The position numbers and the translations under genes are program-made. The notes under the pieces are model-generated. The model saw only the letters and a program-made list of their open reading frames with translations, did not search any database and was not told the DNA's origin. A stretch of 64,000 nucleotides of DNA, from the NCBI GenBank assembly GCA_902520725.1, contig CABYPB010000001.1, positions 1 through 64,000 on the forward strand, read 5' to 3'. The DNA comes from an uncultured SAR86 cluster bacterium. GTDB taxonomy: Bacteria > Pseudomonadota > Gammaproteobacteria > Magnimaribacterales > D2472. Position 1 is the first letter of the stretch. The number at the start of each line of letters is the position of its first letter. Shown here one piece after another: positions 4,558-33,594 of the stretch.

Positions 4558-5606
4558 TGGAGCCACTCGACGATGCAAAATTTTCTGGTACAAAAGAAGT
4601 TGCTGAACATTTAACAATTGAAGTATCAAACTTACAGCCATGGATTGACGAATTTGTGCATGAAGCTGGAAGAATTAACTCTATTGAACAATTTAAAGGC
4701 GGCCAATCTAACCCAACTTATAAAATTGTTACTGATTCTAAAAATCTTGTTTTAAGAAGAAAGCCACCAGGCAAGCTTTTACCATCAGCGCATGCCGTTG
4801 ATAGAGAATATAAAGTTATAACAGCTTTGTATGAAACTGATGTTCCAGTGCCAAAAACATATGGGCTCTGCGAAGATGATGAAGTAGCAGGTACAGCTTT
4901 TTTTGTTATGGATTTTTTAGATGGAGATCTTTTTTGGAATCCTATGATTCCATCACTTTCAAATAAAGATAGAACAGAGATATATCGAAACAAAAATAAA
5001 ACTTTAGCTTTGCTTCATGGGGTTGATTATAAAAAGATAGGATTGGAAGACTATGGTAAGCCTGGAAATTATGTAGCTAGACAGGTTGCTAGATGGTCAA
5101 AACAATATAGGGCATCTGAAACGGATGACATTGAAGCTATGAATAACTTAATTGATTGGTTGCCAAAAAATATTCCCGATGATGATGAGACATCAATAGT
5201 TCACGGAGATTATCGACTAGATAATATGATATTAAAAAATAATCAGGTTATGGGCATCTTGGACTGGGAACTATCAACCTTAGGACATCCTATTGCAGAT
5301 TTTAGTTATCATTGTCTTTCATGGAGAACTCAAGAGGCATTTTGGGATCAAGCTAAATTAAAAGAACTTGGTGTTCCCTCTGAGAAAGAGTATATGGATA
5401 TGTACTGTGAAAATACTGGTAAAGACCTATCAAAAAATTGGGAATTCTATATGGCATTTAATATGTTCAAAATTGCAGGAATCTTGCAGGGGATACTAGG
5501 TCGAGTAAGAGATGGAACAGCATCAAGCAAACATGCTGAAGATAGAGGTATGATGGTTTACCCTTTATCTGAAGCAGCATGGAATACAATTAAAGAAAAT
5601 TTTTAA
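4557..5606 (+). CDS. Phosphotransferase family protein (APH/choline kinase fold, ACAD10/11-like)
   Basis: LVLRRKPPGKLLPSAHAVDREY, SIVHGDYRLDNMI, GILDWELSTLGHP motifs. Confidence 0.85.
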   Translation: MEPLDDAKFSGTKEVAEHLTIEVSNLQPWIDEFVHEAGRINSIEQFKGGQSNPTYKIVTDSKNLVLRRKPPGKLLPSAHAVDREYKVITALYETDVPVPKTYGLCEDDEVAGTAFFVMDFLDGDLFWNPMIPSLSNKDRTEIYRNKNKTLALLHGVDYKKIGLEDYGKPGNYVARQVARWSKQYRASETDDIEAMNNLIDWLPKNIPDDDETSIVHGDYRLDNMILKNNQVMGILDWELSTLGHPIADFSYHCLSWRTQEAFWDQAKLKELGVPSEKEYMDMYCENTGKDLSKNWEFYMAFNMFKIAGILQGILGRVRDGTASSKHAEDRGMMVYPLSEAAWNTIKENF

Positions 5607-5610
5607 TCAC

Positions 5611-6216
5611 CTATCTTTTAACAAAAAATAAAGTGATTCCTGATATAGAGGTAACTAATGCAAGTATTGATAAGACTTTTAGTAAAATATTATTGATATT
5701 GTCTCTTTCCTTGTAATCCATTATATGCAGGCTCCACATCAAGTCCCAGATTCTCCAGGAATCCGATCTTATTGAACCAATATCACCAGTCATATAACCA
5801 ACGTAGACATTTATATCATCTTTGGTATCTGTTTTAACTTTGTATACTGGCAGACTTCCTCTATATTCACCACCTGGATAAAGTTGTGTAACCAATATAA
5901 CTTCTAGAGGATTTAAAGTAGTTTTTTGAGATGTTATTTCTATAGCCTCTTCTTTTGAAAGAGGTTTAACAATATTTCCCTCTGGATAAGTTTTATAAGA
6001 TTTTTCTCCATTTTCATTTGTCTCAATAATAGAAGTTCCAAGTCTGTCAAAAATTCTTAATTCGACATCTTTAGGTAAACGATACTGCTCTCCTCTAACC
6101 AATTCAATTTTGTTATAAGCAAAATAAATACCAGATACAGTCCACAACAAAAGCTGAATGGATACAAATATACTTAAATATCTGTGAAGATTTCTTGTGA
6201 ATTTTTTTGTTTTCAT
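5611..6216 (-). CDS. PepSY-domain membrane protein
   Basis: N-terminal RNLHRYLSIFVSIQLLLWTVSGIYFA, C-terminal TM; PepSY-TM-like layout. Confidence 0.65.
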   Translation of the reverse strand: MKTKKFTRNLHRYLSIFVSIQLLLWTVSGIYFAYNKIELVRGEQYRLPKDVELRIFDRLGTSIIETNENGEKSYKTYPEGNIVKPLSKEEAIEITSQKTTLNPLEVILVTQLYPGGEYRGSLPVYKVKTDTKDDINVYVGYMTGDIGSIRSDSWRIWDLMWSLHIMDYKERDNINNILLKVLSILALVTSISGITLFFVKR

Positions 6217-6596
6217 TTTAATAATTCTTTTAATGGCTCAGATACAAAAGTATATTTTTCTATTTCATCACTTTCAAATAATATTTCTTCATCTTCGTCA
6301 ATTTGAAGAACTATATCGATATCTAAAGTCCTTGCACTAAATTTAGGAGCACTTCTATTTCTTCCAGCAGCATCTTCAATGGACTTAAGTTTGTTATTAA
6401 GTTCATCAAAAGAATCTTTAGTTTCACCGCATATAATTGAATTTAAGAAATCATCTCCCTCAAATCCCTCAGCTTTAGTTTTGTGTATTGAGGAAGATTT
6501 GGTATTGATTAAGATTTTATTAAGCTCTGATTGTGCGAAATCTAGATTCTCTTTTGCGTTTATATTGCTTCCAAGTGATAAAAAATATGTCATCAT
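6213..6596 (-). CDS. folK: 2-amino-4-hydroxy-6-hydroxymethyldihydropteridine pyrophosphokinase
   Basis: FLSLGSNINAKENL, RTLDIDIVL; adjacent to folB. Confidence 0.88.
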   Translation of the reverse strand: MMTYFLSLGSNINAKENLDFAQSELNKILINTKSSSIHKTKAEGFEGDDFLNSIICGETKDSFDELNNKLKSIEDAAGRNRSAPKFSARTLDIDIVLQIDEDEEILFESDEIEKYTFVSEPLKELLK

Positions 6597-6940
6597 CTAT
6601 GAATAATCAATCCAACATCTTTAGCGCCCCTTAGAGCGCCTGGCTTTGAAACTCTTAATTTTATTGATTCAACTTGAAACTCATCTTTGACTAAAGATGC
6701 AATGCCTTCAGCAAGAGACTCTTGTAGCTGAAAGGATGATTCCTCAACAAATTTTATAACAGCTTTACAGATAGTTTTGTAATCAACTGTATCTTCAATT
6801 GAATCGGTTTTAGCTGCTTTTTTGCAATCAAATGGAAACTCCATATCAATACTTACTTCTTGCTTAACTTTTCGTTCCCAATCAAAAATACCTATGATTG
6901 TTTCAACTCTTAAATCTTTTATATAAATTATGTCTTTCAT
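6593..6940 (-). CDS. folB: Dihydroneopterin aldolase FolB
   Basis: DIIYIKDLRVETIIGIFDWERKVKQ; ATG at 6940 gives ATGA-type overlap with tsaD. Confidence 0.88.
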   Translation of the reverse strand: MKDIIYIKDLRVETIIGIFDWERKVKQEVSIDMEFPFDCKKAAKTDSIEDTVDYKTICKAVIKFVEESSFQLQESLAEGIASLVKDEFQVESIKLRVSKPGALRGAKDVGLIIHR

Positions 6941-7941
6941 TGCGTTAATTCGTTTAGGGGCCATCTTGCCCTTACTTTTGACCTAATGTTTTGTTCCTTG
7001 GGAGGTGACATCATTGAGCCTACAAAGGCAATCATAGCTGCATTATCTCCACAATATTTTAAATCAGGATAATAAACTTTAATGTTAAGTATACCTTCAA
7101 GATTTTTAAATTCTTCTCTTATATATTTATTTGCAGCAACTCCTCCAGCAACAATAAGATCAGATCGATTAGTTTCTTCAATAGCCTTTTTAATCTTAGC
7201 TATCAAAACATCTGTAACAGCTTTTTGAAAAGATGCTGCGATATCAGCCTTGATTTTGTCATTTAAATTCCCAATTTTTTGGATCGTATACAAAACTGCT
7301 GTTTTTAAACCGCTAAGACTCATGTTTAAATTATCGCTATGAATCATTGGTCTTGGGAAATCATAAGCTAAAGGATTCCCTTTAAGAGCCAATTTTTCAA
7401 TATGAGGTCCTCCAGGGTAAGGTAGTCCTAGTAATTTACCCACTTTATCAAATGCTTCACCAACAGCATCATCTTGAGATTGTCCAAGTATTTCATAATC
7501 AGCTTTTGCTTTCACATCAACAATCATACTGTGACCACCTGAAACTAATAGACATATAAAAGGCATAGAGATTTCAGGAAATTCCATCATAGGAGACATC
7601 AAATGACCTTCTAAATGATTGATCGGAATAAGTGGAACATCTAATGCAGTAGATAAGCCTTGTGCAAAGCTTTCACCAATCAGCAGTGCTCCAAGTAAAC
7701 CAGGCCCAGATGTATAAGCTATTTTATCAATACTCTCTAATGTATCTTCCCCAAGAGCGTCTTTTAATACATCAATTATTTTCACGCAATGATCTCTAGA
7801 AGCCAACTCAGGAACCACACCGCCATATTCGGCATGCATTTTCATTTGGCTATAAACGGATTCACCAACAATTCCTTTGTTACTATCGTATACAGCAATT
7901 GCTGTTTCATCACATGAAGTTTCTATACCTAAAGTTTTCAT
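6937..7941 (-). CDS. tsaD: tRNA N6-adenosine threonylcarbamoyltransferase TsaD
   Basis: MKTLGIETSCDETAIAVYD, HLEGHL, LVSGGHS motifs; divergent to rpsU. Confidence 0.97.
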   Translation of the reverse strand: MKTLGIETSCDETAIAVYDSNKGIVGESVYSQMKMHAEYGGVVPELASRDHCVKIIDVLKDALGEDTLESIDKIAYTSGPGLLGALLIGESFAQGLSTALDVPLIPINHLEGHLMSPMMEFPEISMPFICLLVSGGHSMIVDVKAKADYEILGQSQDDAVGEAFDKVGKLLGLPYPGGPHIEKLALKGNPLAYDFPRPMIHSDNLNMSLSGLKTAVLYTIQKIGNLNDKIKADIAASFQKAVTDVLIAKIKKAIEETNRSDLIVAGGVAANKYIREEFKNLEGILNIKVYYPDLKYCGDNAAMIAFVGSMMSPPKEQNIRSKVRARWPLNELTQ

Positions 7942-7991
7942 AAAAAAGTTTTGCAAAAATGTTAATAAAAGCCTAAACTACGCGTCACATT

Positions 7992-8207
7992 ATGCCTTCA
8001 ATTATTATAAAAGATACAGAACATTTTGATATTGGTTTGAGAAAATTCAAGCGTGCTTGTGAGAAAGCTGCAATAGTTCCAGAAATCAGAGCTAGAGAAT
8101 TTTATGAAAAACCAACTGAAAAAAAGAAACGTTTAATGGCTGCAGCCGTCAAAAGAGCAAGAAAAACTAATAGAAAATTTTCTTTTTCTAGGCAAAGACA
8201 TAGATAG
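7992..8207 (+). CDS. rpsU: 30S ribosomal protein S21
   Basis: 71 aa, basic; [17 protein letters not shown]...[13 protein letters not shown]. Confidence 0.97.
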
Positions 8208-8209
8208 TT

Positions 8210-8653
8210 TTGGCACTGTTATCTGATATCAAAAAAGATCTTAAACAAGCAATGCTTGATAAAAATGATTTGGAAAGAGATACCATTCGTATGTTTCTTG
8301 CCGAAGTTCAACGTTTTGAAATAGATAATCAAGAAGAAGCAGATGATTCCAAAGCTCTTCAAATTGTAAATAAAATGATTAAACAGAGAAATGATTCCAT
8401 TACTCAGTTTAAAAGCGGTGGAAGAGATGATCTAGCTGATAAAGAACAAAAAGAAGTGGATATTCTTTCAAAATATAAGCCTGCTCAACTAAGTGAAGAA
8501 GAAGTCACTCAAAAAGTAAAAGAAGCAATCGAAAGTGCAGGAGCATCCTCCATGCAAGATATGGGCAAAGTCATGGGAATATTAAATTCATCACTGGCTG
8601 GATCAGCTGATATGGGAATGGTTAGTAAAATTGTCAAAGATAATCTTGGTTAA
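8210..8653 (+). CDS. yqeY: GatB/YqeY domain-containing protein
   Basis: [28 protein letters not shown]...; TTG start; after rpsU. Confidence 0.92.
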
Positions 8654-32480: not shown

Positions 32481-32556
32481 GCCCAGATAGCTCAGTTGGT
32501 AGAGCAAAGGACTGAAAATCCTTGTGTCGGTGGTTCGATCCCACCTCTGGGCACCA
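32481..32556 (+). tRNA. tRNA-Phe (GAA anticodon), CCA encoded
   Basis: 76-nt cloverleaf GCCCAGA...GGACTGAAAATCC...GGTTCGATCC...TCTGGGCACCA. Confidence 0.98.
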
Positions 32557-32635
32557 TTATTAAAGCATTTCAGTAATTTTAGTTTTACGAATAATATCAA
32601 AAGTGCTCATAGAAAATCATTACTATATTCAATCT

Positions 32636-32782
32636 TTATCCTAATGCAGTTCTCTTATTGAGACTATCTACTAATGCCTTGATTAACTTATCATTTCTTT
32701 TTTTTAGTTCTGGATTCACTATCTGTTTAAGTTTAGATAGATCTCTTGTTGAGTCTTTTACATATGAAGTTTTCTTTTCCAT
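32636..32782 (-). CDS. Small hypothetical protein, 48 aa (not in ORF track)
   Basis: Hand translation MEKKTSYVKDSTRDLSKLKQIVNPELKKRNDKLIKALVDSLNKRTALG; directly downstream of 32793-33107. Confidence 0.4.
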   Translation of the reverse strand: MEKKTSYVKDSTRDLSKLKQIVNPELKKRNDKLIKALVDSLNKRTALG

Positions 32783-32792
32783 ACTTAAAAAG

Positions 32793-33107
32793 TTATCTCC
32801 AATGATCAGTTAAGTATTCAATTTCATATTCATCACATAACTTTCTTAACTCAGCAACAGAAAATCTTTCTTCAAAAGTAAAACCTTTCCAAAAAGAACA
32901 AAGGACAAATTTTGCGACATCTTTTTGATGAATCATCATAAAGTACTCGTATTCATCAGTTCCCCAAAATTCTTTCACACCATCTCCAAGATCGTGTTCA
33001 CAAAAATGTAAGTTACCTTGATCATCCCAATCAACATGAACATTATGATTAATTTTTCCTTGAGGCAGGTTAAATTCGCATTTAAATACTTGCATATCTT
33101 TCTCCAT
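32793..33107 (-). CDS. Hypothetical protein
   Basis: MEKDMQVFKCEFNLPQGKINHNVHVDWDDQGNLHFCEHDLGDGVKEFWGTDEYEYFM...; protein-like composition, no family recognised. Confidence 0.65.
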   Translation of the reverse strand: MEKDMQVFKCEFNLPQGKINHNVHVDWDDQGNLHFCEHDLGDGVKEFWGTDEYEYFMMIHQKDVAKFVLCSFWKGFTFEERFSVAELRKLCDEYEIEYLTDHWR

Positions 33108-33204
33108 AAAAAACACACCCAAAATTAGGTATGTTGATGTGAGTAATGGAATCTGAAATAAGGAATATATTTCTTTCTTTACACTTATTTATATTGGGAT
33201 TTTA

Positions 33205-33235
33205 TTGAGAAATTCAACTCAATAATTAGTATAAT
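33205..33235 (+). promoter_or_regulatory. Candidate sigma70 promoter with ATTGAG/CTCAAT dyad
   Basis: TATAAT at 33230-33235; TTGAGA at 33205 (19-bp spacer, suboptimal); ATTGAG-N8-CTCAAT inverted repeat spans the -35. Confidence 0.55.
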
Positions 33236-33250
33236 AAAAGTTCATCAAGA

Positions 33251-33327
33251 GTGAGATTGGGTTCTCCTCCAACCTGCCAACTTCGGCAAGGTGGAAAAGC
33301 GATGTGGTTAGCCAACAATTAAAGGAG
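33251..33327 (+). ncRNA. Candidate structured 5' leader RNA upstream of 33333-33545
   Basis: Hairpin CCaACCTGCC-AACTTC-GGCaAGGTGG (33269-33294); TTGG 33257-60/CCAA 33312-15 closing pairing; CTCCT 33264-68 complementary to SD AGGAG 33323-27. Confidence 0.45.
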
Positions 33328-33332
33328 TAAAA

Positions 33333-33545
33333 ATGAAAAATTATAAAAGAACCGATATCAATAAAGATCTTTGGATAAATGACTATGGAAATAATACTTT
33401 TGATTTATTTTTAAGGGCATCTGGACCAACTGGTGCAGTTGTCTATAGATATGAAGAAGGAAGGCTTAAATGGTGCCAAAGAAGAAGTTATGGTGGTGGA
33501 TCAACACCAAAGCACTTTAACTTTTTTAAATCAGATTGGTCATAA
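33333..33545 (+). CDS. Small hypothetical protein (70 aa)
   Basis: SD AAAGGAG at 5-11 nt; MKNYKRTDINKDLWINDYGNNTFDLFLRASGPTGAVVYRYEEGRLKWCQRRSYGGG... Confidence 0.65.
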   Translation: MKNYKRTDINKDLWINDYGNNTFDLFLRASGPTGAVVYRYEEGRLKWCQRRSYGGGSTPKHFNFFKSDWS

Positions 33546-33594
33546 CTATGTCACTGGTATGAAATTTTTATTTTAAAGAAGTTACAATATACGC

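What the first reader, a model, noticed from the sequence alone, without database searches (positions are those of the whole stretch)
33201..33545. Riboswitch-like structured leader before a 70-aa orphan protein
A TATAAT promoter would start a ~90-nt leader holding a bulged hairpin (33269-33294), a possible long-range TTGG/CCAA closing stem (33257-60 with 33312-15), and a CUCCU tract (33264-68) that can pair with the AGGAG SD (33323-27). TTGG can alternatively pair with a local CCAA (33269-72), giving mutually exclusive folds. The leader looks more GC-rich than its surroundings, a common sign of structured RNA. I do not recognise it as a named riboswitch class.
Basis: partly seen in the sequence, partly recalled or inferred. 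Interest (0 to 1): 0.6.

Follow-up and report, generated by a model that had tools for sequence, protein, structure and literature searches.

The report
SAM-I/IV riboswitch before mobile orphan gene
The leader is a known type of RNA switch that senses S-adenosylmethionine (SAM); in the marine SAR86 bacteria it sits in front of an uncharacterised small gene that moves between genomes beside tRNA-Phe and often lies next to DNA-methylating restriction systems.

Summary
The leader is real, but it is not a new riboswitch class. Window 33237-33332 (+) matches Rfam RF01725 (SAM-I/IV, S-adenosylmethionine) end to end at 72.2 bits against a cut-off of 41.1. Its two proposed pairings (TTGG/CCAA, CUCCU/AGGAG) are not well supported by homologues from SAR86 genomes. 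What covaries is the class's known pseudoknot PK-2, between the P3 loop and the Shine-Dalgarno (SD) sequence. This points to translation being off when SAM is high. The less ordinary part is the gene. The 70-aa protein (p70) is a real gene under purifying selection, in a family found only in SAR86 here. It sits in a cassette between tRNA-Phe and a dehydrogenase gene. In relatives the cassette ends in a duplicated 50-nt tRNA-Phe 3' end. Leader plus gene are 97-99% identical between two genera whose flanking genes are 71-77% identical. Five of 12 riboswitch loci of this family lie within 2 kb of diverged cytosine-5 DNA methyltransferases, against 0 of 17 riboswitch loci with methionine/SAM-metabolism or OmpW genes. 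A SAM-gated accessory of restriction-modification is a testable but unproven idea.

The parts
33230..33235 (+). TATAAT -10-like box; transcription would start close to P1
   Evidence: sequence; a TATAAT-like box precedes the aptamer in many homologues; the window promoter scan is at chance level
33237..33332 (+). SAM-I/IV riboswitch aptamer (RF01725)
   Evidence: cmscan 72.2 bits, gathering score 41.1, model 1-99/99
33242..33305 (+). P1: 33242-33246 pairs with 33301-33305 (outermost pair U-U in the window)
   Evidence: three of five pairs change on both sides, 94% of cells paired
33251..33267 (+).
   Evidence: four of six pairs change on both sides, 88% of cells paired
33268..33295 (+).
   Evidence: five of nine pairs change on both sides, 99% of cells paired
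33280..33328 (+). PK-2 pseudoknot: P3 loop ACUUC 33280-33284 with GGAGU 33324-33328, which contains the Shine-Dalgarno sequence
   Evidence: changes on both sides in all six columns; own-tail pairing above all 5000 reshufflings
33307..33316 (+). short hairpin after P1 (P5 in SAM-IV naming): 33307-33309 with 33314-33316
   Evidence: two of three pairs change on both sides
33333..33545 (+). p70: 70-aa protein of unknown function, start codon directly after the aptamer model
   Evidence: ORF; relatives; dN/dS 0.05-0.24
32793..33107 (-). p109: divergent gene, 104 aa from the ATG at 33107 (the ORF opens at 33122), part of the same cassette
   Evidence: next to the riboswitch in G116, G133 and G088; 83-88% identity across SAR86 genera and families
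32481..32556 (+). tRNA-Phe (GAA), the anchor of the cassette
   Evidence: ARAGORN and Rfam
32557..33574 (.). inserted cassette between tRNA-Phe and the dehydrogenase gene; right border approximate, right tRNA fragment lost in the window
   Evidence: empty sites in L062, L068, L069; flanking tRNA-Phe repeats in relatives; none in the window

Best explanation
Window 33237-33332 is a SAM-I/IV riboswitch (RF01725) in a SAR86 (Gammaproteobacteria) genome. It controls translation of the 70-aa gene whose start codon follows directly. Shown by sequence: class membership, the covarying P1, P2, P3 and post-P1 hairpin, and PK-2 between the P3 loop and the Shine-Dalgarno sequence. Inferred from the class and from this anatomy: SAM binding stabilises P1 and PK-2, hides the SD and switches translation off, so p70 is made when SAM (that is, methionine or reduced sulfur) is scarce. 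Riboswitch and gene are cargo of a horizontally moving cassette at tRNA-Phe. What p70 does is not known.
For: RF01725 at 72.2 bits over the whole model. 36 homologues in 32 of 203 genomes of the order, some before homocysteine-methyltransferase-like, metK-like and metY-type genes, as expected of a SAM sensor. Covariation score 0.344 against 0.169 in shuffles; PK-2 changes on both sides in six of six columns and its own-tail pairing beats 5000 of 5000 reshufflings. p70 is under purifying selection. Cassette identity 97-99% between two genera against 71-77% for flanking genes; flanking tRNA-Phe repeats and empty sites.
Against: Ligand binding and regulation were not measured. The window copy has a divergent P2 loop (UUGGG where most relatives have UUAAR), a U-U at one end of P1 and a G-U in PK-2. 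Predicted folding energy is not unusual.
Confidence: 0.9

Rival explanations
1. One reading: the CUCCU tract pairs with the AGGAG SD in one state and is released in the other, an anti-SD switch (possibly ON with ligand, because CUCCU lies in P2 when the aptamer is folded).
For: The complementarity exists in the window and part of it in relatives (68% of cells pair).
Against: No covariation: shuffles do as well (296 of 500). Both strands are constrained by other helices or by the ribosome. PK-2 instead covaries with the SD.
Confidence: 0.06
2. A degenerate or re-specialised aptamer that no longer senses SAM (pseudo-riboswitch or another ligand).
For: Divergent P2 loop, a U-U in P1 and a G-U in PK-2 in the window copy.
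Against: All columns invariant across the 31 homologues are kept; the score is 31 bits above the cut-off; the downstream gene is under purifying selection.
Confidence: 0.05
3. About the gene: p70 is an ordinary low-SAM or low-sulfur response protein, and its methyltransferase neighbours only reflect shared insertion hotspots.
For: The same riboswitch controls methionine- and SAM-related genes in other SAR86. Islands at tRNA-Phe gather unrelated cargo. Five of the 12 loci, the window among them, have no cytosine-5 methyltransferase within 10 kb. In Pelagibacter SAM riboswitch genes lie in a hypervariable region and two small unknown genes respond to sulfur limitation (PMC5069961).
Against: Other small-gene riboswitch loci (0 of 7 within 5 kb) and metabolic ones (0 of 17) do not show the neighbourhood, and the five nearest methyltransferase systems differ from each other.
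Confidence: 0.5
4. About the gene: p70 is a SAM-gated accessory of restriction-modification (for example it restrains restriction when SAM is too scarce for methylation) or a defence effector set off by SAM depletion.
For: Five of 12 p70-family riboswitch loci within 2 kb of a C5 methyltransferase, 5e-10 under uniform placement conditional on genome. The methyltransferases are mostly 25-35% identical between loci. In G143: riboswitch, 41 aa, 64-aa p70 relative, methyltransferase, MutH-type endonuclease on one strand.
Against: The null does not model island hotspots. Five loci lack a nearby methyltransferase. No PADLOC, Pfam or NCBIfam match.
Confidence: 0.2

Closest known systems
SAM-I/IV riboswitch (Rfam RF01725; SAM-I-IV-variant of Weinberg et al. 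2010, PMC2864571; crystal structure 4L81)
   Same: Whole covariance model, core sequence, P2 without an internal loop, P3 loop to 3' tail pseudoknot PK-2.
   Different: No P4 helix between P3 and P1, unlike the crystallised RNA as described in PMC6890682; the Rfam consensus structure printed has none either. The PK-2 tail is itself the SD, directly before the start codon, and the gene is an uncharacterised small protein.
SAM-IV riboswitch
   Same: PK-2 and a hairpin after P1, as in the cryo-EM structure (PMC6890682).
   Different: P2 is not split into P2a and P2b; RF01725, not the SAM-IV family, is the reported match (related families of one clan are reduced to the best).
SAM-V riboswitch of Pelagibacter (PMC5069961)
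   Different: Different RNA family; controls bhmT, mmuM, metY and osmC rather than a p70-type gene.
tRNA-anchored genomic islands (tycheposon-like elements and other integrative islands)
   Same: Cargo between an intact tRNA and a duplicated 3' part of that tRNA, with empty sites in relatives.
   Different: No recombinase gene was noticed in the small cassettes examined; the window copy has lost its right-hand tRNA fragment.

Membership tests
SAM-I/IV riboswitch (RF01725) | Covariance-model score above the gathering threshold | tested here: met
   72.2 bits against 41.1, model positions 1-99
SAM-I/IV riboswitch (RF01725) | P1-P2-P3 core with P2 lacking the internal loop | tested here: met
   cmscan alignment and covariation; description of the variant in PMC2864571
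SAM-I/IV riboswitch (RF01725) | PK-2 between the P3 loop and the 3' tail | tested here: met
   five pairs in the window including one G-U; changes on both sides in all six columns across homologues
SAM-I/IV riboswitch (RF01725) | Binds SAM and regulates the downstream gene | not testable with these tools
   needs in-line probing and a reporter assay; indirect support from metK-, metY- and homocysteine-methyltransferase-type genes downstream of relatives
tRNA-anchored integrative island | Cargo between an intact tRNA and a duplicated tRNA 3' end, absent in relatives | tested here: inconclusive
   met in G116, G133, G088 and G067, with empty sites in L062, L068, L069; in the window the right repeat is missing
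tRNA-anchored integrative island | A linked site-specific recombinase | not tested
   none noticed among the ORFs of the islands read; no recombinase profile was searched across the genomes
Known restriction-modification or defence protein (p70) | Match to a defence or R-M protein family | tested here: not met
   no PADLOC, Pfam or NCBIfam match for the p70-family sequences tested; proximity to methyltransferases is an association only

The most novel reading that the evidence does not exclude
A SAM riboswitch has been recruited into mobile SAR86 cassettes to gate a small protein that works with SAM-dependent restriction-modification: when SAM, the methyl donor, is depleted, the switch makes p70, which protects the host from its own restriction enzymes or acts as a defence effector.
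Probability: 0.2. Interest if true: 0.8.

Novelty: new member of a known kind. Interest (0 to 1): 0.42.

Why it matters
The RNA itself adds a well-placed member to a known class. What would matter is the gene it controls. In uncultivated, streamlined ocean bacteria a metabolite switch travels with an uncharacterised small-gene family and sits repeatedly beside diverged DNA methyltransferases that use the same metabolite. If the link is functional, it would directly connect SAM supply with restriction or phage defence, and it could be tested in laboratory strains. If not, it still shows riboswitch-controlled genes moving as cassette cargo.

Tried and rejected
Rejected: a new riboswitch class (RF01725 match); the CUCCU/AGGAG switch; the TTGG/CCAA closing stem as a conserved element. 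Led nowhere: homologues of p70 in viral contigs, phages, plasmids and a sample of other Gammaproteobacteria and in a single-protein scan of genome contigs; p109 in phages and viral contigs; PDB by sequence; fold searches with the p70 model (no hit with E below 0.07); AlphaFold of p109 (mean pLDDT 56, too poor to use); PADLOC, PHROGs and NCBIfam. p70 relatives without a riboswitch (G092 contig 5, G019, G015) show no degraded RF01725 copy; the G094 copy is interrupted by an assembly gap. A pattern scan of viral contigs for the leader found nothing. A first pair count had P1 and the last hairpin one column off and was replaced.

Full report
What was checked. The leader 33201-33335 was read, folded, compared with all Rfam families and aligned with relatives. 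The surroundings were compared across 203 genomes of the same order and with named public genomes.

Identity of the RNA. cmscan places RF01725 (SAM-I/IV riboswitch aptamer) at 33237-33332, + strand, 72.2 bits against a gathering score of 41.1, covering the whole 99-position model. No other family matches this stretch at E up to 1. The published description of this variant (PMC2864571) says that it shares features of SAM-I and SAM-IV but lacks the internal loop in P2, as here. Free energy alone would not have found it (z = -0.11). GC content does stand out: 43.8% against 32.5% for the window.

Homologues. The window's genome belongs to the SAR86 cluster: the closest homologues of the neighbouring dehydrogenase are in records titled SAR86. 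RF01725 occurs 36 times in 32 of 203 genomes of the order, against 2 of about 366 genomes sampled from the rest of the class. Genes downstream fall into two groups, assigned by reading the translations. The first group, called metabolic below, has 17 loci: seven homocysteine-methyltransferase-like genes, one metK-like gene, one metY-type gene and eight OmpW-type outer-membrane genes (some followed by a metY-type gene). The second holds 19 loci with small genes, 12 of which carry the family of the window's 70-aa gene, counting longer 119-121-aa relatives.

Structure support. On 31 distinct sequences (alignment A3) the named structure has 89.3% of cells paired and a covariation score of 0.344, against 0.169 +/- 0.010 in shuffles and at most 0.106 when the partner is slid. 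PK-2, between the P3 loop and the 3' tail, has changes on both sides in all six columns. Loop/tail examples are CTCC/GGAG in most, CTCA/TGAG in two, CCCA/TGGG in two, GACTAT/ATAGTC in one and AATACCA/TGGTATT in one. The mean own-tail pairing exceeds all 5000 reshufflings of loops and tails. In the SD-type copies the tail of PK-2 is the Shine-Dalgarno sequence and the start codon follows within a few bases. The SAM-I/IV crystal RNA shows the same kind of loop-tail complementarity in its printed sequence (PMC5393176), and the SAM-IV cryo-EM paper describes PK-2 as connected to P5 (PMC6890682).

Mechanism. Shown: the class, PK-2, and an SD inside PK-2. Inferred: SAM stabilises P1 and PK-2 and hides the SD, so p70 is translated when SAM is scarce. 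From memory, not read here: the SAM-I/IV crystal-structure paper (Trausch et al. 2014) reports that SAM stabilises a pseudoknot that is part of the switch. The OmpW, metK and metY copies have PK-2 tails that are not SDs, with start codons about 25-65 nt further on, so they probably switch in another way.

The gene. p70 is a real gene: codon differences concentrate at third positions and dN/dS is 0.05-0.24. Relatives occur in 12 of 203 SAR86 genomes and in no other genome, phage or plasmid searched. Nothing in Pfam, NCBIfam, PHROGs, PADLOC or the PDB matches significantly. A single-sequence AlphaFold2 model is a five-strand beta protein (mean pLDDT 74.6) without a significant fold match.

The cassette. 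In L062, L068 and L069 tRNA-Phe is followed directly by the dehydrogenase gene. In the window about 1 kb lies between them: the divergent p109 gene, the riboswitch and p70. In G116, G133 and G088 the same unit is followed by a second copy of the last 50 nt of tRNA-Phe, 98-100% identical; the window has lost this repeat. Other SAR86 genomes carry other cargo at the same place, including type I and cytosine-5 restriction-modification genes, with 46-50-nt tRNA-Phe copies in several. In another genus (G067) a riboswitch with a 121-aa p70 relative lies inside a tRNA-Phe island in the opposite orientation. Leader, intergenic region and p70 are 97-99% identical between G116 and G133, which belong to different genera and whose flanking genes, a dimethylglycine-dehydrogenase-like and a mutY-like gene, are only 77% and 71% identical. 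The unit has moved horizontally.

Restriction-modification neighbours. Of the 12 p70-family riboswitch loci, 5 lie within 2 kb and 7 within 10 kb of a PF00145 cytosine-5 methyltransferase; none of the 17 metabolic riboswitch loci and none of 7 other small-gene loci lies within 5 kb. Under uniform placement conditional on genome content, 5 of 12 has probability 5e-10. The methyltransferases of the five near loci are mostly only 25-35% identical between loci, so one travelling system does not explain it. In G143 the order on one strand is riboswitch, 41 aa, 64-aa p70 relative, methyltransferase, MutH-type endonuclease. The caution is that islands gather such genes. The null does not model hotspots, and five of the 12 loci, the window among them, have no methyltransferase within 10 kb. 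I therefore rate a functional link at about 0.2.

Verdict. The riboswitch is a new member of a known kind. The interest lies in the mobile, SAM-gated, uncharacterised gene family and its repeated restriction-modification neighbours.

Noticed in passing
window 32481-33594; L061, L063, L071, L088, L095, L096, L106, L111: The stretch between tRNA-Phe and the dehydrogenase gene is an insertion hotspot in SAR86: empty in some genomes, elsewhere holding one or two cargo units that end in 46-50 nt of tRNA-Phe.
   Followed up: partly
window 32793-33107 (-): p109 is 83-88% identical across SAR86 genera and even families but patchy (38 of 203 genomes with any relative), and 4 of 26 close copies lie within 2 kb of a cytosine-5 methyltransferase. 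It is acidic (22 D+E, 11 K+R) while p70 is basic; a paired function is possible.
   Followed up: partly
L007, L016, L024 (G092, G070, G143): A second riboswitch-associated micro-protein family of 41-45 aa follows SAM-I/IV aptamers; in G143 it precedes a p70 relative.
   Followed up: no
L099, L101 (G092 contig 1, G020): Two SAM-I/IV plus small-gene loci lie 1-2 kb downstream of a glmS-like gene, possibly another insertion hotspot.
   Followed up: no
L096 about 7950-7985 (minus strand): The right-hand tRNA-Phe fragment begins with GACACAAGGACTGAAAATCCTTGTGTC, an inverted repeat longer than the anticodon stem, possibly a recombinase core site.
   Followed up: no
L063 (SAR86A, JH611157.1) about 4560-8250: The dehydrogenase gene occurs twice with a tRNA-Phe fragment before the second copy, and the C-terminal part of a p70 relative follows an assembly gap; rearrangement or misassembly.
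   Followed up: no
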